This document shows positions 1 to 62,170 of a stretch of 64,000 nt of DNA, piece by piece. The position numbers were made by a program, and so were the translations under genes. Location: the NCBI GenBank assembly GCA_964017195.1, contig OZ024894.1:1488501-1552500 (forward strand), given 5' to 3'. The stretch comes from Siderastrea radians. Taxonomy: Eukaryota; Cnidaria; Anthozoa; Scleractinia; Rhizangiidae. How positions within the stretch are numbered: the stretch's first letter is position 1; every line of letters begins with the position of its first letter. Under the pieces are notes generated by a model. That model worked only from the letters and a program-made list of their open reading frames with translations. It did not search any database and was not told the DNA's origin.

Positions 1-1122
1 ATCTCTAAAATAGGGAATCTCTAAATCCACAAGCCCGAACTAAAATCTCATGTCTGTTTTTCTCTCTACCATAATTTGGAAAGGATAGATAACCCAAGGG
101 ACCCTATAAACGCGTTGCGTGACCAACTCGTCACACATCCCTTTAATAAGGCACCGTAATTGCAGATTGAAGAGAGGTATCTTTTTCGGTGTAATAAAAT
201 TGAGTGAACTGAAATAAATCACATCCTGCTGATTGTGATACAATTTATTTTTGTGTGTTGACTGCCGATACTACTTGCAACGCTTCTTTAAGTCTTATTC
301 CACGCTGCAGTTTCTCATTACTGTCACCTGTATTTTGAGTGAACTGGTTAGCATTTGTATTACAATAAGAAGATACTGCACAGCTAAGTCGCGGAAACGC
401 ACACAGGAACGTTGTTGGCCAGATTCCATCCCCACTTTCCTGTTTACCTTTCAAATAAAGAGTTTATGTTTGCTACACGTAGAAGAGAGTCACTACAACA
501 CCTCGACTTCTCATTCTGAACAGTGCGTAAGGTATTTGATGCAAACTGACGGACCCGTGAGGAAACCGAAACTAAAGAGGATCCAAACCCACCAATGGCA
601 GTTCACGTTTGTAATGGGAATTCTTTGGATAATTTTTTCATGGCCAATCAAAGAAAACGTAATGATAACTTTGTACAAGTGGCATCGGAACGGCGCGCAG
701 CACTGTAACAGAAAAGCGCTGCTTCGATTGCGAATTGCCGAGTCGACCAAGCCGTGTTCCACCGTGGAAAGGTAAGCAAACATCACCACCCGTGATACCC
801 TGCTAACAGAGACTTTTCGTTTTGTATTCACGATAAACAAAAGAACTAAGCGAAATACGAGAGACGCGAACATCATCATACATGCTAAGAAAACTTTCCA
901 GAAAGAAACACTCTGCTAGCAGGGTATACCTATAAACTGTAAACTGTTAAACACGTTTTCGAATTCTCATATGAACGGTAACAATACCTATGTTATATTA
1001 TTTTACTGTAAGCAAACGAAAAAAATGTACAACAGCCTCATTTTACCAATAACTAATAAAGGAGCCATTTACGCTGGCTTTGCGCCTCGAGCCAACAACA
1101 TGTGACTGTGATGTCGTGACCT
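1..1122 (+). repeat. Left arm of giant inverted repeat
   Basis: The arm opens already inside the 16-bp minisatellite, in reverse orientation, and ends at about 1122 where pairing with 1568 stops. It contains a nested 133-bp inverted repeat at 795-927 with ends ATACCCTGCTARCAGAG. Open frames of 122 and 174 codons occur but show no recognisable protein features. Confidence 0.85.
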
Positions 1123-17800: not shown

Positions 17801-19163
17801 CTCCCTTATCTTTTCAAGTTTAGTCATGCCGACTTAATATACTGACCTCAAACAATATACTCTTACTAGACAACATATAAGCCATTATGCGAGAGATGAC
17901 AGTTTTTCATTCGCCTATGACTGCAAAGTATACTAAAACGTCACGTTCGCTAGCTGACCTTATTTTGCACCCTGCAAACGACATATTTATTCCTCCAACA
18001 GAGAGAAATCAATGACTCTCCATGTTAAAAGAGTTTGAGGTGACGTTTCGTCAAAGAAAACTTAAGTTTTTCATCATAATTAAAAGGTTTTTTACGCCCT
18101 CCGAACAAATAATCTGCCGAAATGACCAATGGGCGCCCCTGCTGTTTAAACCTGCCTTAACAGGCGTTCATGTTTTTGCACGTATTTGTGAGCTTTCGAA
18201 AATATTCTCATAAACAAGCTTTATTAATAAATGTGGAGAAAAAGGCAGTTTAATTAAGCATTTTGCTAGCCGCACGTTCCTGTGATTGCCTTATAGATTT
18301 TTGATAATTCCCTCTAAATTTTGGGTTAATTGAATAATAGTATTCTAATGAGCGCTATTAATGACGGAAGAGATCAGACAAAGGCATTAAAGGTAAGCGA
18401 TATAATTTAATAAATAAGGTTGAGGTCTTCCATAATGTGCTCACTGTGAAGGGAATTTACAATGATCGGGTCCCAGAGGCAACGCTGAATTTTGTTTTTC
18501 GAGAACTGTCAATATTTGCCGAGCCGAAGTTTAGGGAAACAGAGAATCAATTCGACTTGCTTTGTGCTAAAAATTACAACAACTGAAATATTAACTAGAA
18601 TTTTAAAGTGATTCAAGAGTGAAAATAAAGACAACTTAAAATTGCCAGTACAAATGGGCATTCAAATGATCATAGCTCTGCTTAAGCATTTCACTATAAA
18701 TACAAAAGTTAGAGTGAGTCAACGTTTCGGTGTTGCCCACTCTAACGTATCACCATTATGTTAGTCTTGATCTGATCATGTTAATGACAACATCATCCCC
18801 TCGAATCTGGCCTCTAATATTATTGTTGCATGATAAATTTACGTGCAAAGGAAAAGTTGTACAGGAGGGGAAGACGAACGCTTTTTGTTTTGATTTTTAT
18901 TTCATCACCGTTTTCTCCTAGCTTTCTCGATGAATTTGCATCTTGATTTCACGGAATCCAAATTCCAGAAAATCTAAATCCAAAAATCCTGAATTCCTTT
19001 TTCAATTCTAAAATTTTTGTTTGTTTCTTCAAGGCGTCTCTCGCGCGGACGGCCTGGGCCATAGCAGGATTGGTTACCAAGTTAAGCCACCAGTTCGCCT
19101 TCTTCTTGGTCGTGAACTCGAATTTCTTCAACTTTATCGCGAAAAATTACCATCAGGAACATC
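14831..19163. other. No gene seen; intergenic to ALG11 start
   Basis: AT-rich sequence without a defensible exon or clear TIR element. Two related stretches at about 15780-15850 and 15865-15930 (TCTCGGCRKAGATTAAAACTTTC followed by purine-rich sequence and TTTTTATTCATTTT) form a small direct duplication. The ALG11 promoter must lie near the right end, but I see no clear TATA box. Confidence 0.4.
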
Positions 19164-20675
19164 ATGACTGCTTTGACAAGTGAAGAGATGATTTCAAATT
19201 TAATTGAAGCTTCTATCTGGGCGATCAAAATTCTGACTGTCTTTGCGGTAACCGTAGGTACAGTGATATTTTTTCTACGTTGGTACGTTCGTAGACGGTC
19301 AAACAACGCTCTCCCTCATCTTCGCTCGGTACCTAGCAAAGGACAAGATATTCGACCCGTTGTGGTTGGCTTCTTTCACCCTTATTGCAACGCAGGAGGT
19401 GGCGGAGAGCGTGTGCTGTGGACGGGCATTCGTGCTCTTCAGAAGCGCTACAACTTTGTGCGTTGTGTTATTTACACAGGAGATCCTTATGTGAGTGGAG
19501 AAGAAATCCTTCGTAAGGCCCGGCAACGGTTCAACATTATCCTGCCTCAACCTGTTGATTTTGTATTTTTAAAGAAAAGGCGCTGGGTAGAAGCGGACAT
19601 GTACCCATATTTCACTCTTCTGGGACAAAGCATTGGATCAATGATTCTGGGCTGGGAAGCCCTAAACTGTTATTTACCAGACATTTTTCTGGACACGATG
19701 GGTTATGCCTTCACTCTACCTCTGTTTCGCTATCTGGGTGGATGTCAAGTCGGTTGCTATGTTCACTACCCTACCATTAGCACTGATATGTTATCTCGTG
19801 TCGGTAACAAAACAATTTCGTACAACAACGCTTCCTTCATTAGCAACAGTCGCATTCTCAGCACAATAAAGCTGCTTTATTACTACCTGTTTGCAGTGAT
19901 TTATGGCTTAGCTGGTTCCTGTGCTCAAGTTGTCATGGTGAATTCAACTTGGACTTATGGGCACATTGTATCACTATGGAGGAAGAAAGAGCAAACGTCA
20001 GTAGTGTATCCACCATGTGACACAAAGGCTTTTATGGAGTTGCCGATCAAGATTGGCAATGTTGATATCAATGAAGATGAGGATGGCATTCGTTCCATAG
20101 TGTCGATTGGTCAGTTCAGACCAGAGAAAGATCATCCACTTCAACTGCGTTCCTTTTACGAGTTCTTGAAATGCAAAATGGCCAAAGATAGACACAAGTA
20201 CAAACTTTTTCTTGTTGGTAGCTGCCGAAATCAAGAAGACAGGGATCGCGTGAACTCTCTTAAGAAGTTAACATCTGAGTTAGGCATTCAAAGTTCTGTT
20301 GAGTTTGCTTTAAATGTTTCCTTTGAGCAACTCAAGAAATATCTCGCAGAAGCAACCATTGGTCTTCACACTATGTGGAATGAGCATTTTGGCATAGGTA
20401 TTGTTGAATGCATGGCTAGTGGCTGTATTATCCTGGCTCATGACTCTGGGGGACCCAAAATGGATATCGTTGTTGAATGGGAAGGAAAACCAACTGGATT
20501 TCTAGCCAGTGATCAGAAGAGCTATGCTGCAGCTATGGAGACGATCTTTGCTCTGACCCCAGAGGAAAGGAGTGTCATTTGTCACAACGCAAGGCAGAGT
20601 GTTATCAGGTTTTCTGAGAAAGCTTTTGAGAATGGATTTCTTCAATGCACTGAGCCCTTGTTCATGAATGTGTAA
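19164..20675 (+). CDS. ALG11: GDP-Man:Man3GlcNAc2-PP-dolichol alpha-1,2-mannosyltransferase
   Basis: A complete 503-residue intronless frame. ALG11 adds the fourth and fifth mannoses to the dolichol-linked N-glycan precursor on the cytosolic face of the ER. Visible features are an N-terminal membrane anchor (about residues 13-35), a glycine-rich loop [11 protein letters not shown] starting at residue 76, HYPTIS in the middle, a family-typical VGSCR segment, and the GT-B retaining signature E407-x7-E415 in [15 protein letters not shown]. Length is close to the human enzyme (about 490 residues), and both GT-B halves are present without frameshift. The ATG at 19164 directly precedes the anchor, supporting this start. 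An AATAAA lies 180 bases past the stop. The lack of introns contrasts with the split genes nearby; with an intact frame it is probably functional. Family assignment is very secure. Confidence 0.97.
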
Positions 20676-30556: not shown

Positions 30557-30673
30557 TTATGAATATATGAGATTCATATATTTGAACTGCGGAATGAAGA
30601 AATAAATGTAAAGAAGATCCTCGCAGTTATTAACGCAACTTATGCAGTTGCGAAAAGAAAGCCTGAAAAAATC

Positions 30674-30745
30674 AGGCTTGCCGGGATTCCAACCCTGACC
30701 TCTGCGATACCGGTGCAGCGCTCTAACCAATCGAGCTATCAAGCC
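30674..30745 (-). repeat. tRNA-derived unit A
   Basis: On the minus strand it has an A-box-like TAGCTCGATTGG, an anticodon-arm-like CTGCACCGGTATCGCAG and a B-box-like GGGTTGGAATCCC, with a six-pair acceptor (GGCTTG/CAAGCC). The T arm is mismatched and B-box GGTTCGAAT has become GGTTGGAAT, so I treat it as a tRNA-derived repeat, not a working tRNA. Confidence 0.55.
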
Positions 30746-30920
30746 AACTTGGAACTGGTCATTAAATTGGCTCGTAATATACCCGGGAAAGATGAAGATG
30801 AATTATGAATATACGAGATTCATATATTTGAACTGCGGAATGAAGAAATAAATGTAAAGAAGATCCTCGCAGTTATTAACGCAACTTATGCAGTTGCGAA
30901 AAGAAAGCCAGTTCCCAGTT

Positions 30921-30992
30921 GGCTTGTTAGCTCAATTGGTTAGAGCGCTGCACCGGTATCGCAGAGGTCAGGGTTGGAATCCCGGGAAGCCT
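30921..30992 (+). repeat. tRNA-derived unit B
   Basis: Nearly the same sequence as unit A but on the plus strand and with a poorer acceptor stem (GGCTTGT opposite GAAGCCT). The loop would place GGT as anticodon (Thr-like), but U33 is replaced by C. Repeat-derived. Confidence 0.55.
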
Positions 30993-46700: not shown

Positions 46701-49700
46701 AACTCGTCTGGGGGATTTCACTGACATTCAGCGTCAAAAGTTAATTACATCTTGAGGTTGACACAGAGGAGGAGAAAAGTCAAGCGAGCAAGAGGCGTTG
46801 TTGCGGCGACAATCATTTGATTCCGCAACTTGTTCCAACAGTTGAAATAGTTTGGGTTGAGGGGGACAGCACAAGATAAAAGTTAAAAAAAAGCAAAAGG
46901 CGATTGTCACCTTGTTTGAACTCGTCTGTTAATGCAACATGTCCCTGCTCCAAACCGCTCAAAAATAAACCAAACACAAAGCGAATCACAGAGTAGCGGT
47001 CACACGAAGCAAAGCACAAGGGAACCATTCAAGTGTGACCAGTCCCTTTGTACAACAAGAGACATTTTCCCGTTTTATGTCCCTGAACCTTGCCCCTCGT
47101 GCGTCCTTCACCGCTGCGTCGAAATTGCAGCAACACAAACCTTCACTGCGTCAGGGTCGGAGGCCTGGGTCAAAGCTTCGAAAATCTCCTTCCCGTCATG
47201 CAGAAGTCGTAAATGATCTGATGAAAAAGAACGGCGGCGAAATCTTGCAGACCTTCTCCTTTCTGTCTCTGAAAAAAAACAAACAAACCGGGTGTCGTTG
47301 TTAATCTGCGAAAAACAAAAACTAAAGGTATGTCCCCCCAAAAAGGAAAATAGGTAATATGTTCTGCCCTGGGATGACATTGCCTTGAGTAAAACAGCCC
47401 TGTTTTGACTCAAAAAAGCAAATACTTGACGTAAAAATGGGGATCAAATGAAGTTTATTAAATCTTCTTGTCACAGAGAGTCACTTACTGACTATTCGAC
47501 ATATTTCTCTAACATGTGGGGCAAACTTGAGATCCAAACATATTGCCTGAGTGCCCTTAAAAAATTGGTTTCTTGTTTCCTAAAATGCTAAGGATTGTAA
47601 AATATTAACCTGGCTGTCGATATTCTTTCTCGAACTCTTCTTGGATCTTGAGGAAAAGTTTTTCTCTTCGCTGATGCCGATCCGCTTCAAACCTCTTGGC
47701 TTCTCGTTCCTCAAGTCGAGAGTTGCGAAAGATGTTTGTACCATCAGGCATCTTTTCCATCCACTGTGAAAGCAAATATTATTACTACTATATATCCTCT
47801 ATTAAAAGCCAGCTATAACTAAAAAATACGTCGTAGAAACATTTCCCTTTAAGGTATTCAGCCTGAACAATGTGTGAACGGAAACAAAACTTATGAACGA
47901 CTGAGGTCCTTTAACCCCTTAAGCCCTAATATAAAATGTGCATATTCTCCTTACTGTTCTCCATAGATTTCTTATGGAACTAGTAAGGAGAATTTGTCTT
48001 AATATCAAGACATGTTATCCTTGGTGATCATTTCCTTTATTCTCATCACTTGAATGTTTGAACAAGTAGTGACAATGTAAAGAGAAATTTCATTTTCCTC
48101 ACTGTTAGGGCTTAAAGGGTTAAACACAGGTTGTGTGGGTATTACTCGAATGAAAATGCCAACAACCCAACCAAACAAAAGGACGAACATTAGTTGTGGA
48201 ACCTCTGTTGTCGCTCGTGAAGTTTGCAAGTTTCATAACTTAACAACACCCAACCTTTACATAAACGGTTAACAACAATGGTCGGCTCAAAAAAAAAACA
48301 AAAAAACAAAAAAAAAAAACAAAGATTGAGTCCACATTCACATCCACAAGGTGCTTCAGTTATTGACCAATGAAAAGCAGTCGGTAACTTTGTCACCTGC
48401 ACAGGGTACTGTCTCAAGACGATGACATCCACACAGCCTGTGAATCCACCATCACCAAACAAAGAAGCCAGCGGTAGTGGAAACGCATGCGTGTGACTAT
48501 GGAATCCCAGTTTCGCATCCCATCGTGCACGTCGGGTAGAGTTGGCGTGAAGCCGTAGCATTAACGATGATGGGGCCTGATACGAAAGTGAAGCGTTAAT
48601 AGCGTCAATAGAATTTAATGGAAGAGAGGCTAAGCTTTAGGAAAAACTACAGACCTTACTTTACAGATCGTACTTATTTGAGAGATTTGTACGGCAAGAA
48701 GTGACTTAGGGCACCCAACTCGGTTGTTGACGACAATTTGTTTCTTGGCTTGCTTTGTGCAGAAATCTATGATATTTCGTAAAACGCTTATAAAAGATGG
48801 TGTCATGGGTTCGAGTGTTTTGGCATTGAGGCTGAAAGGTGAGGGATCGTACAATTTTGTGTGGAAAGAGTGTTTCTAACCCCCATCTTTTCCACCGCCG
48901 TTTAGAAGTTACTTTTCTACGACCCTATCACAATTATTCACTATGACTAATTCGCTACCTTGAGGTTTGCAAATTATTCTCGTGTATGATGAAAATCAAT
49001 GGCCTGCAATTTTTTTTTTTTTTGCAAGGTCTTTTTCTGGCTGGCGGAATAACTTATCAGACAATTCATGCCTCAGTGGGCTTGAAGCTTGGCTGGCTGC
49101 CGGACATTTTTTTTTTTTCAAACAACCAGCATACTATTCAAGCAAAATAACCGAAATAATTTTGTTTGCAAACACAAAACAACACACAAGTGTACCTCGA
49201 GAGGCGACACAGCCTGCTCAGATCCCACTAACTCAGCCCCATAAACACACAGCTTCTGTCCCACAACAAGCTTCCTGTCATTCAACAGTTTTGTGAGAGG
49301 TCTGTCCAATAAACATCTCATGCCGTACCACCCATCCGTTAATTCCATGACGGCGGAACTTTGCTGGAAATTTGATTGAAGATTTGGTAGAATAAGTAAA
49401 GTGGTATAGTACAGATATGAAGCCTAGCTGTGATCAGGACGTATGACGTGATTTTTGTTTACACAGGTGTGCTCTGATCTCCTCAATAACATGAATTTAT
49501 GGAGTATTAAATGTAGTCATAAATAGGTTGTCTATGGTCGTCCAGGTGAGTGTAGTTGTGAAAAGGATTTCGATAACCAGTGCAGAGGTCATCATCACAG
49601 TTGAAGTGAATTGTGTATCGTCAGTCGGTGGCATAAGTCTGATCAAATGTGCCGTTTATCAGCTGGAGCAAATATGACAAGAAGTCCTTGACCAGTTTTT

Positions 49701-51600
49701 TTTTTTTTTTTGATTTCCCTTTGAAGTTTGTAAAGCTGCGGTGCATTGAAACAGCTGAAGAGTTGAAGGAAGTTTGCACTGCTTTGGGTTGGAATCTCTG
49801 AGTCATTTCTACGACCCAAACTAATTTAAACGACAAAGCAAATTTAGTAACAGATACCTCAGTTTTCTTGGCGTTTCCCTGAGCATCATTTTCATCGTCT
49901 TGATCTTTTTTCTCTTGGGCAGCACTGTCACTTTGATTATCTATTACCGACACATTAGATACACAGAGCACCATAGTACGGCTGGACACATCATCTCGCT
50001 CCAGTATCTTCTTCAAAGCAGACCTAAGAAATTATAGCGAAAAATCGAAATCAAAATGAAGAGCACCGGGAAGAAAACGTCTCAAATGTAATACTTTTGA
50101 ATTTTTCATTGAAAATTTTGTCTTTTTGCACCTAACAAATAACTTTTTGTTTTCAAAATATTGCCTAGTTTAGGTTTATTTAACTTCAAGGCGTTCACAG
50201 GCCACCCAAAACGATAATTGCATGTTCAATGCATATTGGCATAAAAAGTCACTAAAGTATAGGATCGTTTCTACACGGAGCCTTTGAAATTGAAACATCT
50301 TCGATTACAGTTGCCCATCAACCCGGCACTTTTCCTTGGTTAATTCTGTAGCATAAAGGCGATTTTACACGACAAGCTACATCTTCCAAAATTGTTCTGA
50401 CATACTTAAAGTAAAAACCTGAAGTCTATTGTATTACCTGTTGCTATTATCAATTTCCCTGTCATATCTGTACTTGAGTTGGCACAAAACCCAGTCCGGA
50501 GTCAAGCATCTGGAAGAAAATGTCAAAATATTAATCAGTTATCTTGTCTAATTAAGTACACTACATTTAATCTGCCATGAATTTAAGCTTATTAGGAACT
50601 TGAAGAATGCCGACGTCCATAACCAAGTAAGCAAACACAAAACTTGCCTTCCAGCAAACTGTTGCGGAAAAGCTACCTCCATGGCGGCTAGTTTCCAAAC
50701 TATCCATCCGAAATGATTAGCGATCCATTCTTCACTGATCAACTGCCTGTCCACTCCAGGTGTACTAAGGAATGCGCTGAGGAAAAGAAAAACATTCTGA
50801 GCGTTAACTTATTTTCAGACTGTGACCAGCCAAGGAACACGTGCGTGAGCTATGACAGACCTCTAACAAGCTATGACAGACTTAATATATTTCCAGAGAG
50901 TCGCCACTAATTTACGTTTTACCCAGAGAACATTAACAGCGGTCGTATCACAGCTGCTTTTTTGGAGCATCCCACAGAAGACGGCGCAGAACGAGTGCCC
51001 GGCAACAACAGATGACGATCAGCTGGAAGTAACAAAGAGTTGTCACAGTAGGAGCTTCCTCCCGCTCGACCTGCTACAAACAAGCGCCCTTACGTTGATT
51101 TATTTTTTAAAAAATTGAAAATGATCTGACTTTTGTATCTTATTTGCTACCTTTGAATCTCTGCCAAGCCAACACTGCCATCTGTCCCGAGATGCAGTAT
51201 TCCGCCGTCTTCTGTCCTGACGCCTTCCTTGCTGGACAACACAGCTTCACTGAAATACTTTCTGCCGTCGAATCGGAAGGATCTCGCGTTAGAGGAAGTA
51301 ACAGATAGCAACTCTAGGGAGACGCCGAGTTCATTAAACTGAAATCAGAAGACGAAGCGAAACGTCTACGATTAGGTCGTACATTAGAGTCTCGATAATT
51401 CAGTAACTCAGGGTAGACACAATTTGACCGAGTGAGTTGGAACAGTTTTCATTTGGTCTACGTAATCATCTCTCAACCCAATCACAGCGAAACAATTGGA
51501 ACTCGAAGCAAATACATGTGAATGGCGCTAAACGCGGGAAGACCAATGCGAGCAGGTCATGGTTTTGTTTTCACTTCTAATTAGTTGAGAAAGTAGATTT

Positions 51601-51636
<36 letters not shown>

Positions 51637-51912
51637 CCAATCACAGAGCGTAGAAAAGCAAACCAAGAAAAACGCGAATTACTTTCGAAACTCAATTGAA
51701 AACCACTCAAAACAAAAGTTTGAGTTATTGGGGTTAAATCACTGTATTATGTAAACAACAACAACAACAACATTAAATCTACTTTCTCAACTAATTAGAA
51801 GTGAAAACAAAACCATGACCTGCTCGCATTGGTCCTGCTCGCATTGACCTGCTCGCAATGCGAGCAGGTCATGGTTTTGTTTTCACTTCTAATTAGTTGA
51901 GAAAGTAGATTT

Positions 51913-51954
<42 letters not shown>

Positions 51955-54104
51955 CCAATCACAGAGCGTAGAAAAGCAAACCAAGAAAAACACGAATTAC
52001 CTTCGAAACTCAATTGAAAACCACTCAAAACAAAAGTTTGAGTTATTGGGGTTAAATCACTGTATTATGTAAAGCAGGGAAATTGTTAAGATAGAAAGTA
52101 GTTCGAGTTAACGACAATTGAAAACACCTGTCGTAGACATCATGAATTAAAGAATAAATTTCTTGGACAAAACAACTTGGACATTCAAACAAATCGCACC
52201 TCAGTAGCGCTGAATCCTCCCGGCGTAGCGTTTCCAACGAATTCTCTTAGCTTGATCCTCTGATGGTGGCGACGGAGGGACGAAAGAAAGCCAGGCTGCG
52301 GTTTGACTCTACACTCGTTCTGAAATGGGAAAGTATCAAAAATTTTAGTTTTACACATTTCGTCTCACATCAGTTTCCTTAGTTTTGAGATGCTATCCTT
52401 TTTTCGATGTTGATTCGAAATAGGACTGAATGGGGAGAAATATGGGAAAACTTTTTGGGAGGGGAGGGGGCGACTTGGTTCAAGGTAATGGGGTTTTCAA
52501 GACATCCGGGATAAAATACATCCGGAGTAACAGTGTTACTCTGCATGATGGGGACCAGGAATCAAATTGGAGATAACGGGAAGCTCGAGATATTCGGGGT
52601 TCGAGATAACAGGACTTCACTGTACTAAAATCAAACCTGTTTCAAAATACGGACACCAAATGGACGCAGATGAGTGTCCGTATTATGGAGGTTACTGTAA
52701 CAATTTCGAGCGATACTCTAGGGGATCGTCGTGAATCGGGCCCCGGAGTAGTGATGGTAAGTGACATACAAACATGGGTCAAACTAACCTTGTTCAGCGT
52801 ATCGTTAGACACCGTAATCCTCGGCTTCTTTGAGGAAGGTTCCATTACGCCTGACTCTTGACCCTCCAACGAGTCACTAACTGACAATCTAGAAGAACTA
52901 CAACGTGCAAGGGGCGAGACTTTGCTGTTAGCTTCCTGCTTTCGGTAAGGCGTGATAAACTGCGGGCGTGGGCCGGGCGTTCTTCGGTTTAACGGAGTGC
53001 TTGTTCTTGGAAAAGAATCTGCTTTCGACTTGAAGCATCCAGGTGTCAGAGCCTGCAGAGGCCTGAGGCAGCGGTTGGAGTTTGAGATTCTCGATGAGTT
53101 TTTGGGGTCTGCATAACTGTATCGCCTAGAGCTGGGATTACAAAAATATCGCACAATAAACCTGCAGGTGGCGTGAAAAAAAAAGCAGTTGTGCTCCAAT
53201 CAGGCTTGTTATGTCGCACGCCAGGAACCTTAAGCAGCCATGACGGCAACACAAAAGAAAACTGAACGTATAAAGAAATTCACGTTTTGTGGTCGTTTCT
53301 AATACTATTCCTCCCTGGTATAAAAATATCCAGTAAATACCTTGATGCACACGAACCCTGTAAGTTCTCAACACTGGCCTGGCGAGCCCGCAAAGGGACG
53401 TGGAATGATCTTGCCCGCCGATCGTGCAAAACACCTAATACAAAAACCAGCAAAGTAAAATATACAACGATTGAAACAATCATAAGGCGAAATTATTCCT
53501 TTATTTATTTACCCAGATAACACATTTTTTACAAGTTGCAACTCAATCTCAATCCCATTACCTAAAAGTTTCTATTAATTTTGGCAAGGTATTAACGTGA
53601 AGGCCACTTAGAACTCTAGATGGGCCAACGCTCTTCAGTTTTCCTTTGTTCTTGTGAAACGATTTTTTTTTTGTTTCGTCTATGAATTTTGCATTACATC
53701 ACAACAACGGAAGTCTCGTAGTCTGAAGAAAGCATATACCTGATGGAGTGGTGGTGCAAGGTTTCATCCCATTCCTTGTCGCTGAGTGATTTGCCTTGAA
53801 CATCTCCTCGCTACAGCGCAACTGAGATACAATAAAATCAAATAAACAACAGGCAAGAATGGTTATAAGAGACCACAGACCTAAGTAATTAAATGTCGTA
53901 ATAAAAGTAAGCAGAAGTAAAAACGGCCGGTTCCGGTAGCACATAAGGCGGCAACAAGTTTATTCCATTCATAACGGTCTTCACTGAGCTAACAAGACAG
54001 CTTGAGCCCAGTTGAGATATCTTCTTGTTAATCTCTGGTCGTCAGTAACCTTGCATCAATTGAAATGTTACGAATAGTTGCACTTTAAGAGTCACTGTTT
54101 GTTC

Positions 54105-54562: not shown

Positions 54563-57500
54563 AAAAGGATTTCTATAGCGCCATATCCATAGGCTCATCA
54601 GTGATGAAAACGTAAATACATACAAATACTTACTGAAATTCATTTGATAATTAAACACATAAATATATAAAAATACTAACTAAAATTCATATCTTAATAT
54701 TTACACTGCAAAAATGTCGACAGCCATGACCCTTCAACTTGGCTGATGGTACTGTCAGGAGCTTCTTAGATGCAGATCTTAAGCTTCTTGATGGTCTCTA
54801 GGGTTGCAACATTTCCGTTATGTAAGAAGGTGCTAACCAATGTAAAGCTTTGAAGATTAACAAAAGTGTCTTGTGTTTGACACGGCTGTCAACGGTAAGC
54901 CAGTGTAACTGCTTTAGAAATTATGACTATTAATATTATTAATGCAATTTGTGCAGTTCTACTTCTCACCTCAAAAAAAAAAAAACGTGGACGAAAAACT
55001 TTGGTCCAAAAAAAGAAAAACATTTTACTTTCCGAGAAGATCTATCGGCGAATGACTATTGAGCCGATCAGATTTTCGTATTCGCAGTAGTTTAAGGTGA
55101 ATATCTACAAGCTAATTACATATCTTGTATTTTACCTGCATGGCTGTTTCCCTTATCCCTTTCCACCAATGAAACCGCAGGTCGAGGCGTGTTCAAGGAA
55201 CTCCTTAAAGCAACAGATCGCTCTTGCTTATCGTGTAGGTACTCCGACACATCCATAAATGACTCATCAGCGAGGAGAGCTTCAGAACTCTCAAGAATCT
55301 CACGAGATACCGCTTCATCATGCTCAACAAGACTTCTCCTCTCTTGATTACACTTGATTTTCCCCCGAGCCTCTACAGAAACTGCTTGTTCTGTGCACTC
55401 ACGCAAAGAAGCTCCAGTGCCCTGTTCAATTTTAAAGTCGCTAAGGTCATTGTCTGTCTCCAGGAAGAAGGCTCTTGCATTGCTAAGCACTTCCTCTGAT
55501 ACAGACACTTTCTGGCCTCCAGCAGTGAAAAAGCCTTTAAAATCTCCGGCATCTCCGTTATTTTTAACAAGAATAGTATTATTTTCAACACCTTCAATGC
55601 TGAACTTCGCTTGTCCTTTTGCCGTACTTGAAACGTGTTCGATTTTGTTTATACTCTCTTCCTTACTTGCAGTCTGAAATCCAAGAGTCTCGCTCTCTGA
55701 AGACAGTGAACTGATTTCCCTATCTATGCCAGCCATTGTTTCCTTTGCCTTGGCAAGCGCAGATTCCGAGATCTGCAGCGTTTTACCATCTGCTGTTTGA
55801 AAACAAGAGGAGGCTCCAAAACTTGTTGTGCTATGTCCTCCTTTGTCCACTTTATCCTCAAGCGACTTGTCAATGTTTTGCATTATGGCTGCTCCTTTCT
55901 CCAAAGATTCTTTTGATAGTTTTACGTTCTGTCCACTTGCGGTTTGAAAGCCAGAAAAACCAGTTGCACTTCGCGAATTAAATGGCTTGTTTCCCTTGCC
56001 CTCCGCAAGAGATTTATCTATCTGTTGCATTATCTCTGCTCCTTTCTCCAGAGAGTCTTTAGACAGTTTGACACCCCGTCCGCTTGCAGTTTGAAAGCCA
56101 GAAAAACCAGTTGCACTTCGCGAATTAAATGGCTTGTTTCCCTTGCCCTCTGCAAGAGATTTATTAACCTGTTGCATTATCTCTGCTCCTTTCTCCAGAG
56201 ATTCTTTAGACAGTTTGACACCCCGTCCGCTTGCAGTTTGAAAGCCAGAAAAACCAGTTTCACTTCGATTATTAGATCTGCTGTTGCCCTTGTTGTCTTC
56301 AAGAGATCGGTCAATTTGCTGCATTATCGCTACTCCTTTCTCCAAAGATTCTTTAGACAGTTTAACGCTCTGTCCACTTGCAGTTTGAAAACCAGAAAAA
56401 CCAGTTGCAAATGGTAAATTAAATCTTTTGTTGCACCTGCTTTCTTCGAGAGATTTGTCAATTTGCTGCATTATCGCTGCTCCTTTCTCCAAAGATTCTT
56501 TAGACAGTTTAACGCTCTGTCCACTTGCAGTTTGAAAACCAGAAAAACCAGTTGCAAATGGTAAATTAAATCTTTTGTTGCACCTGCTCTCTTCAAGAGA
56601 TTTGTCAATTTGTTGCATTATCGCTGCTCCTTTCTCCAAAGATTCTTTGGACATTTCAACACTCTGCCCACTTGCAGTTTGAAAAGCAGAAAAGCCAGTT
56701 GCACTCCGTGATTCAGATGGCTTTTGGCCCTTGCTCTCTTCAAGAGATTTGTCAATCTGTTCCATTATAGCTGCTCCTTTCTCCAGAGATTCTTTCAACA
56801 TTTGAACTTTTTGTCCACTTGTGGTTTGAAAACCAGAAAAGTCAGTTGTACTCCGATTATTAATTATGCTGTTGCCCTTGTTGTCTTCAAGAGATTTGTC
56901 AATTTGCTGCATTATCGCTGCTCCTTTCTCCAAAGATTCTTTAGACAGTTTAACGTTCTGTCCACTTGCTGTTTGAAAGCCAGAAAAACCAGTTGCAGTC
57001 CGTGAATTAGGTCTGTTGCCCTTGCTGTCATCAAGAGATTTGTCAATCTCTTGCATTATCGCTGCTCCTCTTTCCAGAGATTCTTCAGACATTTTAACGC
57101 TCTGTCCACTTGCAGTTTTAAAACCAAGAAACCCTGAAAGACTAGTTGTCTTTAAGTCTGTTTCCTTGCTTTGATCTAAAGATCTGTCAATCTGTTGTTT
57201 AACGCCTTTCCCTGCAGCTAGTAGAATACCACAGCATCCGGACAAACTACCACCGTCTGTTCCAGTGTTGTCCTCCCTCTGTCCCAGCGACTGGTCAACT
57301 TCTTTCATAATCTGCGCACCTTTACATAACGCTTCCTCGGACAACATCGAACTCTTTCCTGTGGCGTTGGTAAAGCCTGAAACGCTGACGTTTTGTCCGC
57401 CATTGACAATACCTTGTTTCAGAGAAACGTCAATTTGTTGCATGATCTTTGCTCCTTTCTGCAAAGCTTCCTCAGACATATCTACTTGTTTCCCAGAGGC

Positions 57501-60500
57501 GGTGTGGAATCCAGAAAAGCCAATCGATTTACTCTCCTTTTCTGCCTCCATAAAATGGTTCTCAACTAATGGCTGTGTGCCTGGCCCTTCTCCTCCTTTT
57601 ACACACCCTCTGTGGAATCCAGAACGGCAAACTCTAGCCCCTTCCGTTTTGATTTGGGCAAGTTTTCTTAAGTCTCCTTCACTCTCTTCGACGGCTTTTC
57701 GACCTCTCTTCAAACCCTGTTTGGAAATGGAAATGTTCTTTGCATCGGCGAAATGAGACCCAGTTTCAGTGAAAACCAATGAAGATGTTTCGTTATTTTC
57801 ACGAAGTTGATCTTCTGAAGCCGCAAGTCTTTTCATTATGTCCCTTCCAGTTTTCAATGCTTCCTCGGATAAAGGCACATTCTTTCCCCTCGCAGTTTGA
57901 AATCCAGAAAAGGACGAAAACCTAGCAGCTCGTTTGCATTGGCCTTCATTATAAACGCCTCCCTTCGCATTCGTTTCTGATTGCCTCCTTGTGTTCGAAG
58001 CTTCCTCTAAATTATCATCAGCTTCGTGAAATACCGACTTAAACCCGTGCGAGCTTGGGGAAACAAGCCTTGAATTGCTTTGGCCATCAGCAAAAATCTC
58101 GTCGTTAATTTCCTTCATGGTACTGTGAGCACGTTGCAAAGCACCTTCAGAAATCTCAACCGCTTTACCACCAGCAGTTCGAAACCCCGAGAAGTTTAGT
58201 GAATTTCCTATTGGTTCATTTCTGCCCCCTAAAATTTGCTGTTCTTCGATTTGATTCACATTACTTTTGCCAACGTTTGAAGAGCCTTCCAAGGTTTCAA
58301 CAACACTAGCTGGAACTGTGTGGAAACTACAAACTTCTGCACGGCCCATGTTTGGTAAAATGTCAGCTCCAATGGATGTAGGTTTTTCGTCAATTTTTTT
58401 CCAAGTATTTCTTGCCTTGATCAAAGCTTCTTCAGATACAGAAACAGACTTGCCACTTGCAGTCTGGAAACCGCTACAACCTAGCACGATCGGCGTTCTT
58501 TCGTCTCTAGACGTGGCGTCAAGACGCAAATCAGTCTCGATGCCTTCTCGTCGTTTCAAGGCTTCTGGACTGTCTGCGGCCAAGCGAAGATTATTCAATT
58601 TAGGACTAAATGTTTGATTTTCCAGTTGTTCCTCCATTCTTTCGTTCTCTTCAGAGATCATGTCCATTGAATCTCTACGTCTTCTCTTGCAGTCATTCAG
58701 CAAGTCTTCAAGTAACGAGTCGTTAACGCTGTCTTTCTTTTTAGTTCCACTTTTACCCGCGTTTTCTAAGACAGCGTCATTATTTTCCATCCCGGAATTA
58801 GCTTGAACGCAACTAGGCGCAACTGCTTCGCATAAACCCATATCTGAGAAGTCTGGCCGTGGCAAAACTTTAAATTCTTTGTTTCCCATTTTGCAAAGAT
58901 CCAAATCATCATCATCGTACTCGCGGTATTTCTTTAACCCATCTAAAGAACCTGGTAGCGAGCTTCCGAAATCATTTCCGATACCATTGCACGGTACTTC
59001 TTGAAAATGAATGACAGCACCAAGTTCTTTCTCCGAGGCACTGCGGTTTTTTTTAATCACATTAGATGGGTCTTTCTCCCCTGTATCAGCTTTCAACTCC
59101 GTGTCTATTTCACTTAATGTTTTCCTCGCTTGTTTCATCGCAGCTTCTGAAACGCGAACTTGTTTACCACTAGCAGTTGAAAAGCCACAAAATGCAGGCA
59201 ACCCTGTGTGTTGCTCTTTAAAGTCAGATAGGTTTTCCCGTTTGGAAATATAAAGTTCAGCTCTACCTTTCAAATCAAAGTCTTTGATTCCATTTCCAGC
59301 GCTTGACAAGCGGTTGACTTCAGTCTGCGTGATTGTTGGTAGAGTTGCTTCTTTGCCTATCTTAGTGCTGGACTCAAGGAGGTTACAAACTCCATTCATC
59401 TCAATCGTAGACGGGTCGGGGTCACATTCTTGTGAAACAAAGTTTATCGTGGAATTCTCCACTGGCTGGTCTAACTCCTCGAGTAAAGCTCGAGCATTAA
59501 TCAAAGCTTTTTCCGATATCTCAATTACCTTGCCTCCTGCAGTGTGAAACCCGGCATTGTTTGATTCAGAACGAAAGCATGACGAGTTCGTTCGCAAATA
59601 AGAACACGAGCCCGGCTCCTCAAACCCTTCTTTTTCCTCCCGTTCGTGAAAAGAATTGCCTTCATTCTGCATGGTTTTCTTATCACTAGGCACTGCATAA
59701 TTGCAAATTCTCGCATCGCCTAGTCCATGACTTGTCCGCGAGTCGATACTTTTAACAATCTTGTGTTTTTCTTTACTTGTAATCGTAAATGTGACGTTCA
59801 TTTCATGTCGCAACCTCGATGACGAGGTGTCAACATTCAAGGAGTCTGAATCATAACGTAAGGATGGAGGAGACAATATAGAGTCTACTGGAAACTGGCT
59901 GAGTGCATCCATATCGAAGAGAACTTCATCCTCTGTACACTCTCCATTTATCGCTAAAGACCCTGGAGCCGCTCCCGTCTCAGTACCACTACCCTGCCCT
60001 TTCTCATAGATCTTCGGTCTCTTTGCCGCCGGCATTTCGCCCTCCCCACCCTTATCACTACTCATATTGCACACTCCCTGATTATCAAGAGTTTTATCAC
60101 CGGATACAACGTCGTTCCCCTGGTTAATAGTAATTGACTTCTCTTTCCCCATAACAAGAGAATTGTTAACAGCTGCAGTGATCTCTTTGCAGCGCTTGCC
60201 TGTGTCTTGCTTGGCAACTTGGCTCGCAGTTGGATACAAGAATCGCTTGCTTTTGACGGAACGCCTTAATCCGGGAACTTTGCAGAACGACCCTGCCCTA
60301 GAGAACCTAACCCAGTCATTTGGCGATCCAGGGGATGAATCAGTCGCTTGGTTTCGGGGGGTTTCGCCGCTAGTTTCAGTGTTATCAGCGTGATTTATTG
60401 GGGTCTTTGTAGTCGTGGCTTGATTTAGTCGGATTCCTGTATAAGGTTCAGTGACTTGGTTAGTTTGGGTTCCTGCGGTGCTTCCTGTAACATTATCTTG

Positions 60501-62170
60501 GATTGTTGGAGTTTCTCTGGTACAGTGACGGACTTCTGTCAACTGAAATCCCTTCGTCCTGTTCAGCGCATCGTCAGTCTGTGGTGACTGGGCGATTAAA
60601 CTAGATGACAGTGACGAACCTGAAAAGAAAGATTAAGTTAAATTTCTTTAGAGTCCTAAAACGTTTATTCCTACGTAATGCAAGACCAATCATTAACACG
60701 AAAAATTGTCAAGCCTCTTGGAAATAAGGATTGAGAATTTCTGCGAACCGCATCACAAAAAAAGAAAACGGGTAAATACCTGTCAAATTTGACCTCTATT
60801 TTCCCAGCTGATTTTGAATCGAAACTGATTCTCACTTTACATGTTAGATGGCATGACAAATGCCTTTATGCAAAAGAATGATTGCTTTCAAGTGAAAGCT
60901 TAGTCAATAAGAGGAAACTCTAGCAGCGAATGCACTGAGACAACGGAGGTTTGAAACCGCAGAATAACTTATTCGTGGAATAATTTATTACCGTGGAATA
61001 ATATATTCTAAAGAACTGTGAAACAAGTCATACCCAGTCCGGAAGTTCGCGAATCTCTTTCTACTCTAGAACACAGCTTGTCCGCTTCACGAGCCATGGC
61101 AAGCTCAAAAGACCTTGATGGGGAGCCAAACGTCACATCAGACGAGAAAAGTTTGCAGTTTTCTTCCAATGCAAGACAAGTGACGCCGCACTCACTTTGA
61201 ATAATCCGCGCCTTATCGCAAAGCAGGCTAAGTGAATCCCTGTTTCTAGGGAGACTCGCATGACGTTCTTTAAGGAGGCTTTGGCCATTTTCCACCACGT
61301 GGAATCCAGCTGAAGTTGAAATGCTGGGTTTCGGGGTAGACTGTGCGAGAGCTTTTAGAGGAGCCCGGGAAGGCGGCGAAAGAAAGCTGTTCGAGAAAGG
61401 CGAATGTAACGGGCTTGGGTTAATAGATAGTTCCGAATTCTGAGACCTTGGCACGTTAACCATAGGTGTGAAAGTCACTTTCCCATCATAATCTTCCTCA
61501 GAAACGCTAAACTTGTTTCCAGACGGTGAAGCTACTATAGACTCTTCAAGTAAGTTCTTAGAGCAATCTTGGTCCCGATATTTGGTATCATTGTCACATG
61601 AATACTCGAGCAAGACTTCTTCCACTAAGCATGACTCTTCCGTTACCCCTGATTTTTCATCCGAGTCTTCCTTTGCTTCTTTTTCTACAAGGGGGTCTAA
61701 GGGTTGATAGTCTGTAATAGTATCGTCTAAGGACAACTCCAAAGGCTCCATGGACCGATTGGTAGTGCTGGCAGAAAACAATACTCGGGCAATGCGCTGT
61801 AGAAAAATAACAATCATATGAGTAATCAGCTTAAAATTTCCCCTTAACAACACAGTGGAAAGTGGGGAGGCCCGTTAATCGCGCCCCCCAGCAAGCACGA
61901 CAATCTCGCTGTATTGACGGCATGGCTGTATTGACATTTTGTCGCGGTAAAAACATCCATTGGTGGTTGCGATTTTAAGACCCTGTGCATGAAGTGAATA
62001 ACAAGTATTCAAAACAAGAAACTTTATAGAGACCTAAGAACTGAGCAGTGAAGTTCCATGAAGCTACAGCGTGAAAGAATGTGAAAGGTAAATTCATCTC
62101 ACCTTTGACGATGGTTGGCCCTCTTCCTCCAAGGATTCTTCGTTTGTTTCTCGCTCGCCGCCAGCTACCT
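38463..62170 (-). CDS. BRCA2: BRCA2 homologue, 26 exons (5' end incomplete)
   Basis: BRCA2 loads RAD51 on single-stranded DNA during homologous recombination in the nucleus. Exons: 62170-62103, 61796-61034, 60619-55136, 54474-54425, 53821-53740, 53434-53341, 53131-52789, 52319-52200, 51338-51151, 50776-50648, 50509-50438, 50023-49858, 49363-49196, 48576-48397, 47763-47610, 47268-47141, 46225-46106, 45086-45008, 44286-44187, 43645-43618, 42918-42838, 42611-42502, 41541-41466, 40463-40281, 39691-39479, 38759-38463. Every junction is phase-consistent and gives at least 3157 codons (human 3418 aa). Order: acidic N-terminus, BRC repeats, helical domain, OB1, tower, OB2, OB3, proline-rich C-terminus. 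All introns are GT-AG except one GC-AG at 50647. The start codon and first exon(s) above 62170 were not resolved, and a PALB2-binding motif was not found. The last two junctions are less certain than the rest. Confidence 0.93.
39479..52319 (-). CDS. BRCA2: BRCA2 DNA-binding domain exons (helical, OB1, tower, OB2, OB3)
   Basis: Eighteen short exons carry the whole ssDNA/DSS1-binding region. The helical domain starts near 52319 and includes [13 protein letters not shown] and [20 protein letters not shown] (50776-50648). OB1 includes [39 protein letters not shown] and VYGAELVGS. The OB2 entry holds [16 protein letters not shown] and [18 protein letters not shown]. The tower spans 47763-46106 with [32 protein letters not shown] and [20 protein letters not shown]2 resumes with [22 protein letters not shown]3 carries [28 protein letters not shown] and [20 protein letters not shown]. 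All correspond in order to the vertebrate domain, so DNA binding and DSS1 contact are expected to be kept. Confidence 0.93.
39964..40220. mobile_element. TA-flanked MITE in a BRCA2 intron
   Basis: A 257-bp element with ends GAGCGGTTTTCAATTGAGTG, flanked by TA (39962-39963 and 40221-40222). It has a T-rich centre. Related sequence (CTCAATTGAAAACCACTC) occurs at about 51700 and 52010. Confidence 0.7.
41963..42065 (-). mobile_element. Truncated family A MITE
   Basis: In reverse orientation it matches the left half of the copies at 23143 and 47915 (TTCTCCTAACTAGTACCATA, TGGAGAACAGTAAGGAGAA), with TTAA at 42062-42065 at its intact end. The other half is missing. Confidence 0.6.
43725..44015 (+). 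repeat. (TCAG)n microsatellite, imperfect
   Basis: About 290 bases of CAGT/TCAG tetramers, regular at 43725-43785 and increasingly interrupted afterwards. Lies in the BRCA2 intron between the exons at 44187 and 43645. Confidence 0.9.
44538..44730 (+). repeat. ~66-bp tandem repeat, three units
   Basis: Units start at ACTAG near 44538, 44605 and 44671 and share AGTAGTAATRCTCCTAGYCA and CTTTATSCTGGG. Intronic. It resembles the tail of a dispersed repeat and is preceded by a repeat-like open stretch at 44290-44530. Confidence 0.75.
45174..45702 (+). mobile_element. TA-flanked element with 5' remnant of a gene
   Basis: A 529-bp element with ends CCGTACCCAAATT, flanked by TA (45172-45173 and 45703-45704). 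Inside are two short plus-strand frames, one starting at 45489 ([18 protein letters not shown]) and one at 45574-45651 ([20 protein letters not shown]). The second resembles the N-terminus of DUF3504/KIAA1958-like, Crypton-related proteins (an NTxxxT motif after acidic residues). I infer an internally deleted copy of a coding element. Confidence 0.55.
45709..45858. mobile_element. TA-flanked hairpin MITE
   Basis: A 150-bp, nearly perfect palindrome with ends CCTAATCGCACC / inverted GTACGATTAGG, with TA on both sides (45707-45708, 45859-45860). It begins only four bases after the right TA of the preceding element. Confidence 0.7.
47915..48119 (+). mobile_element. TTAA-flanked MITE, family A copy 2
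   Basis: A 205-bp element flanked by TTAA (47911-47914 and 48120-48123). Ends are CCCCTTAAGCCCTAA and inverted TTAGGGCTTAAAGGG. It closely matches 23143-23342 throughout. Lies in a BRCA2 intron. Confidence 0.75.
51548..52073. repeat. Direct plus inverted duplication with (GTT)n
   Basis: The block 51548-51755 recurs at 51860-52073 and differs mainly in GTT copy number (about two more units). Between them, 51756-51859 is an inverted partial copy including AACAAC repeats and CATGACCTGCTCGCATTGG. The block carries the CTCAATTGAAAACCACTC end also seen in the MITE at 39964. Located in the BRCA2 intron between exons 52200 and 51338. Confidence 0.85.
54100..54135 (+). repeat. (GTT)n microsatellite
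   Basis: About 10 GTT units in a BRCA2 intron, next to a T-rich stretch. Confidence 0.85.
54190..54394 (-). repeat. tRNA-derived SINE in a BRCA2 intron
   Basis: On the minus strand an A-box-like GGTACAGTGATGGGAGA and a perfect B-box GGTTCGAATCCC lie about 40 bases apart, followed by TCCGAAC...TTTCTCCGGTTTACCCCCTC. This is the layout of a tRNA-derived SINE. A related body is at 35640-35880. Confidence 0.65.
54508..54562 (+). repeat. (GAT)n microsatellite
   Basis: About 17 GAT units, followed by a repeat-like TTTCTATAGCGCCATATCC. Confidence 0.9.
55136..60619 (-). CDS. BRCA2: BRCA2 giant BRC-repeat exon (5484 nt)
   Basis: The counterpart of human exon 11. The acceptor TTTCAG precedes GTTCGTC at 60619 and the donor is GCAG|GTAAAA at 55136. 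Reading from the N-terminal side, RAD51-binding BRC units with F-x-T-A-x-G cores are [36 protein letters not shown], then after a degenerate patch FKTASG, eight [12 protein letters not shown] units, FQTADG and FFTAGG: 17 clear units, with three or four degenerate ones between. Each clear unit has the second conserved helix (for example [13 protein letters not shown]) in place of the human LFDE region. Human BRCA2 has eight BRC repeats. The exon is fully open over 5.4 kb, arguing for selection on the frame. Confidence 0.95.
55855..57150 (-). repeat. Tandem array of nine near-identical BRC units (~147 bp each)
   Basis: The GCAGTTTGAAAGCCAGAAAA-type core recurs at roughly 147-bp steps near 55945, 56090, 56240, 56390, 56535, 56680, 56825, 56975 and 57115. 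Encoded units share [32 protein letters not shown] with few changes. Two neighbouring pairs share even their linkers ([10 protein letters not shown] twice, [11 protein letters not shown] twice), showing local duplication or conversion. Confidence 0.95.

What the first reader, a model, noticed from the sequence alone, without database searches (positions are those of the whole stretch)
55136..60619. BRCA2 with about 20 BRC repeats
Seventeen clear F-x-T-A-x-G units plus three or four degenerate ones are encoded in one exon. Human BRCA2 has eight; the highest counts I recall are around 15 in Trypanosoma brucei. This would be among the most BRC-rich BRCA2 proteins and suggests heavy RAD51 loading capacity or selection on repeat number.
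Basis: partly seen in the sequence, partly recalled or inferred. Interest (0 to 1): 0.8.

Follow-up and report, generated by a model that had tools for sequence, protein, structure and literature searches.

The report
Coral BRCA2 with many BRC repeats

Summary
Minus-strand exon 60619-55136 encodes a BRC array: Pfam PF00634 finds 16 units, a tuned profile 18, with no hit in 200 shuffles; three relics seen by eye make 21. The gene is a real BRCA2: 23 exons chain by GT-AG into one 3,131-codon frame, with helical, OB1, Tower, OB2 and OB3 domains above Pfam cut-offs. Nine central units form a tandem block of 48-49-residue period. Among eight of them the RAD51-facing core is conserved (dN/dS 0.18) and the linker is not (0.88), at similar synonymous divergence. 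So the cores look functional, while the number is labile: 10-23 in 49 putative anthozoan proteins, some of them fragments. The window beats the counts I saw in print (up to 15), but 18 of 52 invertebrate rows found by their DNA-binding domain score 18 or more; Owenia (annelid) has 35 and Branchiostoma floridae 28 by Pfam. It is an ordinary BRCA2 with a long, partly homogeneous BRC array; nothing here shows selection on the number itself.

The parts
55136..60619 (-). BRCA2 BRC exon, open throughout
   Evidence: ORF; acceptor TTTCAG, donor GTAAAA; PF00634 330.6 bits
55858..57131 (.). 147-bp tandem array (8.7 copies, 84% matches) that codes the homogeneous block
   Evidence: Tandem Repeats Finder
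59445..59549 (-). BRC unit 1, FHTA
59079..59183 (-). BRC unit 2, FSTA
58365..58469 (-). BRC unit 3, FQTA; holds the best-scoring Pfam stretch
58080..58184 (-). BRC unit 4, FRTA
57798..57902 (-). BRC unit 5, FQTA
57648..57752 (-). relic BRC unit (FADA, two residues short)
   Evidence: read by eye; not found by the profile
57405..57509 (-). BRC unit 6, FHTA
57270..57374 (-). BRC unit 7, FTNA
57123..57227 (-). relic BRC unit (no FxxA, middle missing)
   Evidence: read by eye; not found by the profile
57018..57122 (-). BRC unit 8, FKTA, first of nine tandem units
56874..56978 (-). BRC unit 9, FQTA, tandem block
56727..56831 (-). BRC unit 10, FQTT (FxxA lost), tandem block
   Evidence: P0002 has FQTA here
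56580..56684 (-). BRC unit 11, FQTA, tandem block; 93% identical in DNA to unit 12
56433..56537 (-). BRC unit 12, FQTA, tandem block
56286..56390 (-). BRC unit 13, FQTA, tandem block
56139..56243 (-). BRC unit 14, FQTA, tandem block
55992..56096 (-). BRC unit 15, FQTA, tandem block; 97% identical in DNA to unit 14
55845..55949 (-). BRC unit 16, FQTA, last of the tandem block
55698..55802 (-). BRC unit 17, FQTA
55575..55679 (-). relic BRC unit (FQTA kept, second half lost)
   Evidence: read by eye; not found by the profile
55428..55532 (-). BRC unit 18, FFTA
61034..61799 (-). upstream BRCA2 exon; its 5' edge is only the start of the coral match, its acceptor was not modelled
   Evidence: tblastn to coral BRCA2; chained
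52774..53880 (-). three exons between the BRC exon and the DNA-binding domain (53880-53740, 53434-53341, 53089-52774); the edges at 53880, 53341/53089 and 52774 are weakly supported
50438..52319 (-). exons of the helical domain (52319-52200, 51338-51151, 50776-50639, 50509-50438); the edges at 52319 and 50639/50509 are weakly supported
   Evidence: PF09169 174.8 bits on the spliced model
48397..50023 (-). exons of OB1 (50023-49858, 49363-49196, 48576-48397); the edge 49858/49363 is weakly supported
   Evidence: PF09103 147.1 bits
46106..47763 (-). Tower exon (47763-47610) and the next two exons (47268-47141, 46225-46106); the edge 47141/46225 is weakly supported
   Evidence: PF09121 51.6 bits
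42838..45086 (-). exons of OB2 (45086-45008, 44286-44187, 42940-42838); the edge 44187/42940 is weakly supported
   Evidence: PF21318 44.6 bits
39479..42611 (-). exons of OB3 and beyond (42611-42502, 41541-41466, 40463-40281, 39691-39479)
   Evidence: PF09104 108.3 bits
38463..38759 (-). last exon with stop; C-terminal motif resembling the TR2 RAD51-binding domain
   Evidence: PF22687 21.3 bits, below its cut-off of 27

Best explanation
This is the BRCA2 gene of a stony-coral relative (Hexacorallia). Its large central exon codes a three-part array: seven diverged, unevenly spaced BRC units on the N-terminal side, a block of nine similar units at a 48-49-residue period, and two diverged units on the C-terminal side, with three decaying units interspersed. 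By analogy with known BRC repeats, each intact unit docks one RAD51 through FxxA and a second hydrophobic patch, so the protein is a multivalent RAD51 carrier that the DBD delivers to single-stranded DNA. The tandem block behaves like a coding minisatellite: unequal exchange adds and removes whole units, single units lose FxxA, and purifying selection keeps the RAD51-facing core of the copies while the linkers drift. Shown here: identity, domains, count, tandem structure, the core-versus-linker contrast, number differences among relatives. Inferred: RAD51 binding, unequal exchange as the cause, any effect of the number.
For: Domains: helical, OB1, Tower, OB2, OB3 all above cut-off on the spliced model; one open frame of 3,131 codons over 23 chained exons. 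Relatives: proteins of Porites, Stylophora, Acropora and Montipora with precomputed BRC and DBD domains; two of the four carry the name BRCA2. The best of two weak PDB matches is chain B of 1n0w, a BRCA2 peptide (E 0.089; that this entry is human RAD51 with BRC4 is recalled). Count. Tandem block; nine units 67-97% identical in DNA. Constraint: dN/dS in core and linker 0.18 and 0.88 for 8 units, 0.21 and 0.82 for 7, 0.23 and 1.00 for 4, 0.18 and 1.08 with a shorter 15-codon linker; 0 of 20,000 column permutations reach the pN contrast. Same plan elsewhere: the window's first unit matches P0004 unit 1, and its last unit matches the last unit of P0003, P0004, P0006, Acropora and Montipora. Turnover: P0002 lacks one unit and has lost FxxA in two units intact here, while the window lost it in one intact there. 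In T. brucei the BRC expansion was crucial for efficient recombination and RAD51 localisation (PMC2408642, passages).
Against: No expression, binding or read data. P0001 may come from the same animal, so it does not prove the array length. P0002 is a protein from an 8-kb JGI contig and could be a chimera. Comparisons among units are not independent, and exchange among units can distort dN/dS. The N-terminal units of Porites, Acropora and Montipora match the window's poorly or out of order in several cases, and Porites lacks a good match to the last unit. In the same T. [quoted passage not shown] 7 of 22 splice junctions had a second choice within 8 score points. The N-terminal PALB2-binding region was not found in the window.
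Confidence: 0.82

Rival explanations
1. The unit number is neutral: the tandem block expands and shrinks by unequal exchange, a few units suffice, and twenty bring no gain over eight.
For: Number ranges from 10 to 23 in 49 putative anthozoan proteins and from 0 to 38 in 52 invertebrate rows. Single units lose FxxA. One BRC repeat supports mouse ES-cell viability (PMC12803100, abstract and passages). Short alleles persist in Drosophila yakuba (PMC2882388, passages).
Against: Cores of the tandem units are conserved while linkers drift, so copies are not free to decay. Multiple repeats mattered under oxidative stress in mouse cells and for recombination in T. brucei.
Confidence: 0.5
2. Long arrays are selected in this lineage for high RAD51 capacity, for example against oxidative or light damage in symbiotic corals.
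For: Core constraint; PMC12803100 links multiple repeats to resilience under oxidative stress (abstract).
Against: Acropora (11) and Montipora (10), also corals, have little more than half as many, and some clams, lancelets and an annelid have more. The symbiosis link is my speculation; whether this animal has symbionts is not known.
Confidence: 0.15
3. The array length is an assembly error (collapsed or expanded repeat).
For: A 147-bp repeat with two units 97% identical can be misassembled; the 15 units predicted for T. brucei TREU927 were 11 on mapping.
Against: 33 of 36 pairs of tandem units are 88% identical or less, so reads can be placed. P0001 has the same array in a sequence differing at two internal residues, and P0002 has 17 units by my profile, 15 by Pfam. 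The reading frame stays open.
Confidence: 0.07

Closest known systems
Human BRCA2 (BRC1-8, helical-OB1-Tower-OB2-OB3)
   Same: Domain order, BRC FxxA core, one large BRC exon followed by DBD exons (human layout recalled)
   Different: 8 non-identical units in mammals against 18 plus 3 relics here, nine of them in tandem; the second RAD51 patch, LFDE in human repeats (PMC9162458, abstract in listing), reads IMQQ or similar in the block
Trypanosoma brucei BRCA2 tandem BRC array
   Same: Head-to-tail coding repeat (44 residues there, 48-49 here) with a diverged C-terminal unit; number variable
   Different: T. brucei units are virtually identical and number 15 predicted, 10-12 measured in T. b. 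brucei strains; here units differ by 3-33% in DNA and are flanked by diverged units on both sides
Porites lobata BRCA2 (P0015)
   Same: Same plan: diverged units, 49-residue tandem block, diverged end
   Different: 15 units (Pfam 14) against 18 (Pfam 16)
Owenia fusiformis BRCA2 (P0256)
   Same: Homogeneous tandem BRC array plus full DBD
   Different: 38 units by my profile, 35 by Pfam, mostly at a 33-residue period with almost no linker

Membership tests
BRCA2 | BRC repeats (PF00634) | tested here: met
   330.6 bits against a cut-off of 20.3; 16 stretches
BRCA2 | helical domain (PF09169) | tested here: met
   174.8 bits, cut-off 25
BRCA2 | OB1 (PF09103) | tested here: met
   147.1 bits, cut-off 25.6
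BRCA2 | Tower (PF09121) | tested here: met
   51.6 bits, cut-off 25
BRCA2 | OB2 (PF21318) | tested here: met
   44.6 bits, cut-off 27
BRCA2 | OB3 (PF09104) | tested here: met
   108.3 bits, cut-off 24 on the spliced model; one exon alone scored 15.2
BRCA2 | C-terminal TR2 domain (PF22687) | tested here: inconclusive
   21.3 bits, below the cut-off of 27
BRCA2 | N-terminal PALB2-binding segment | tested here: inconclusive
   the first 215-280 residues of three coral BRCA2 proteins gave no consistent match upstream of 61802; exons may lie beyond the window end
BRCA2 | binds RAD51 and DSS1 | not testable with these tools
   needs protein work
homogeneous tandem BRC array (T. brucei type) | fixed-period head-to-tail units | tested here: met
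   nine units at 48-49 residues
homogeneous tandem BRC array (T. brucei type) | near-identical units | tested here: not met
   [quoted passage not shown] brucei

The most novel reading that the evidence does not exclude
In many animal lineages outside the vertebrates the BRC array of BRCA2 is a coding minisatellite in continual birth and death, reaching 15-38 units, so the recombination mediator's own RAD51-binding capacity is reset by unequal exchange. In my survey 28 of 52 invertebrate rows have 15 or more units and 18 of 52 hold four or more adjacent similar units, against 0 of 169 vertebrate rows with even three. This contradicts the 2008 statements that, T. congolense apart, other organisms' BRC repeats are unevenly spread and degenerate, and that some T. 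brucei strains have the greatest number described in nature.
Probability: 0.6. Interest if true: 0.55.

Novelty: new member of a known kind. Interest (0 to 1): 0.42.

Why it matters
Why BRCA2 keeps several BRC repeats is unsettled. Natural arrays from about 10 to 38 units in otherwise ordinary BRCA2 proteins give a ready-made dose series, and the contrast between conserved cores and drifting linkers suggests that the extra units are kept as binding sites. It also corrects the idea that about 15 is the upper limit.

Tried and rejected

Set aside: plus-strand ORFs across the exon (five of 103-193 aa), which I take as antisense shadows of the array and did not test. Weak Pfam hits in the array (SNRNP27, PARP_reg, Mu-like_gpT, Cuticle_1, IDEAL): no stretch passes on its own, although the whole-protein SNRNP27 score (27.6) exceeds its cut-off (23.1). 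Rejected: that the window holds the record count.

Limits of the survey. The one search list (120 of 142 shown) favours repeat-rich proteins because the query was the array, so it was not used for rank; P0001-P0049 are called anthozoan by similarity, only five bear a species name, and some are fragments (Oculina's 10 units in P0048 and 3 in P0067 are neighbouring gene models). The DBD lists show 120 of 528 and 120 of 632 proteins; I sorted rows into invertebrate and vertebrate by name. The 52 invertebrate rows include seven amphioxus rows, second rows for Crassostrea gigas and Pomacea canaliculata, and one row with no units (P0258). My profile was trained proteins; it finds 5-7 units in 101 of 104 and 52 of 65 vertebrate rows, 7 in dog as does Pfam, and can exceed Pfam (Mactra 21 against 14). 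The biased one search list holds 14 teleost rows with 9-13 units, so vertebrates are not uniformly low.

Literature: ten searches. No title or abstract opening that they listed reports a cnidarian BRC array or an animal count above 15. They cover open-access papers only; two searches were too loose to be useful; known counting papers such as Lo et al. 2003 (recalled) did not come up. Outside the passages of three papers I saw listings only.

Full report
WHAT IS THERE. The minus strand holds one long open stretch, 60632-55116. Pfam PF00634 scores 330.6 bits over it with 16 stretches at E<=1. A profile seeded on window units and rebuilt three times over the window and the 120 listed proteins finds 18 units, all at 15 bits or more, and none in 200 shuffles of the near-identical protein P0001. 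F-x-T-A occurs 17 times against 0.32 expected from shuffling. Of the 18 units, 17 keep FxxA; the one at residue 1268 reads FQTT. Three more stretches, at residues 961, 1136 and 1652, are worn units seen by eye. So '17 clear plus three or four degenerate' is a fair reading.

IT IS BRCA2. Downstream exons on the same strand match coral BRCA2 proteins. Chaining 23 exons by GT-AG sites gives one frame of 3,131 codons with a single stop at the end. The spliced C-terminal 863 residues hit helical, OB1, Tower, OB2 and OB3 above their cut-offs, and TR2 below its own. In 7 of 22 junctions a second choice scored within 8 points, and the gene's 5' end was not found. Named relatives nearest the top of the list are Porites lobata, Stylophora pistillata, Acropora palmata, Montipora capricornis and Oculina patagonica, so the source is most likely a hexacoral; the species is not known.

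ANATOMY. Units 1-7 are diverged and spaced 45 to 238 residues apart. Units 8-16 form a block at 48-49 residues. Units 17 and 18 are diverged again. The block's DNA is a 147-bp tandem repeat at 55858-57131; its nine units are 67% to 97% identical in pairs. Units 14 and 15 (97%) and 11 and 12 (93%) look like recent single-unit duplications; units 9 and 13 are 92% identical though not neighbours. Several other putative coral proteins show the same plan, with a block of 45- to 49-residue period of varying length; in Acropora and Montipora the units are fewer and less alike.

SELECTION. For eight block units, synonymous divergence is similar in core and linker (0.35 and 0.34), but amino-acid-changing divergence is 0.08 in the 30-residue core against 0.31 in the 19-residue linker. 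dN/dS is 0.18 and 0.88; none of 20,000 permutations of codon columns reached the contrast. Leaving out the last unit, whose linker differs, gives 0.21 and 0.82; four more distinct units give 0.23 and 1.00. The units are related and may exchange sequence, so these are descriptions rather than a formal test. They suggest that the copies have been kept as core motifs.

TURNOVER. P0001, an ENA protein, equals the window but for two internal residues and its start residue. P0002, from a JGI contig, is 83% identical, has 17 units and lacks 49 residues of the block. P0002 has lost FxxA in the units at 1042 and 1219, which are intact here, and keeps it at 1268, where the window lost it. It differs from the window at 152 of 1,253 aligned residues before residue 1412 and at 10 of 404 after (Fisher p about 3e-10), while the divergence of three other relatives falls only by 0.07 to 0.10 across that point. 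The switch falls in the array at the missing unit. That is what unequal exchange between two haplotypes would leave, and also what a metagenome chimera would leave. The first part is patchy: residues 250-369 differ at only 4 of 120.

HOW RARE. In print I saw: most vertebrates 8, Anopheles 10, Trichomonas 14, T. brucei 15 predicted but 10-12 by mapping in T. b. brucei strains (PMC2408642, passages); Drosophila up to 11 (PMC2882388, passages); 1 to 15 for trypanosomes (PMC12803100, passages). To rank the window without favouring repeat-rich proteins I searched with DNA-binding domains alone: Acropora (120 of 528 listed) and Ruditapes (120 of 632 listed). Of the 52 invertebrate rows, 18 have 18 or more units, 21 have 16 or more, and the median is 15. 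Vertebrate rows cluster at 6 by the same strict profile (94 of 104; 30 of 65), with a gar row at 17 confirmed by Pfam. Pfam agrees at the top: Owenia 35, B. floridae 28, the amphioxus hybrid P0126 28, Macrosteles 27 and Ruditapes 22, Lytechinus 23 (that row has only a partial, sub-cut-off helical domain and FxxA in 7 of 24 units). Pfam was lower for Mactra (14 against 21). The window is therefore high but not exceptional. Homogeneous blocks are also not unique to it: 18 of 52 invertebrate rows have four or more adjacent units at 70% identity or more (the near-identical P0001: nine), but other rows with many units have none, such as P0051 and Mactra with 21 each; none of 169 vertebrate rows has even three.

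MECHANISM AND VERDICT. The most likely reading is a normal BRCA2 that carries many RAD51 docking sites, with a tandem block whose length is set by exchange and whose cores are kept by selection. Whether twenty sites do more than eight is open: T. brucei data favour an effect of number on recombination and RAD51 localisation but not on VSG switching, and mouse data show that one can suffice except under stress. RAD51 binding of these units is inferred from the motif, not shown.

Noticed in passing
window 1-1122 and 1568-2689: A perfect 1,122-nt inverted repeat with 445 nt between the arms, the left arm starting at the window edge; a fold-back element or an assembly fold.
   Followed up: partly
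window 19116-20675 (+): Open frame without introns for an ALG11 mannosyltransferase (ALG11_N 308.9 bits).
   Followed up: partly
window 51544-51755 and 51856-52073: A tandem duplication 312-318 nt apart, 98-100% identical in its two matched parts, in a BRCA2 intron, carrying TTG microsatellites.
   Followed up: no
window 30672-30747 (-) and 30921-30992 (+): Two tRNA matches on opposite strands in Rfam; ARAGORN calls the first tRNA-Thr(GGT) and does not report the second.
   Followed up: no
P0002 against the BRC exon, window residue about 1412: Identity jumps from 88% to 98% inside the array, at a one-unit deletion: a recombinant allele or a metagenome chimera.
   Followed up: partly
protein P0256, Owenia fusiformis: 35 BRC stretches by Pfam, most at a 33-residue period with almost no linker, beside a complete DBD; above any count I saw in print.
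   Followed up: partly
protein P0268, Lepisosteus oculatus: A gar BRCA2 row with 17 units by my profile and by Pfam, where most vertebrate rows have 5-7; its units are dispersed, with no run of similar neighbours.
   Followed up: partly
proteins P0263, P0264, P0320 and P0069 (crinoids and sea urchins): Many BRC-profile hits but few keep FxxA (2 of 15, 3 of 12, 6 of 16, 7 of 24), so these echinoderm units may dock RAD51 differently, or my motif window misses them.
   Followed up: no
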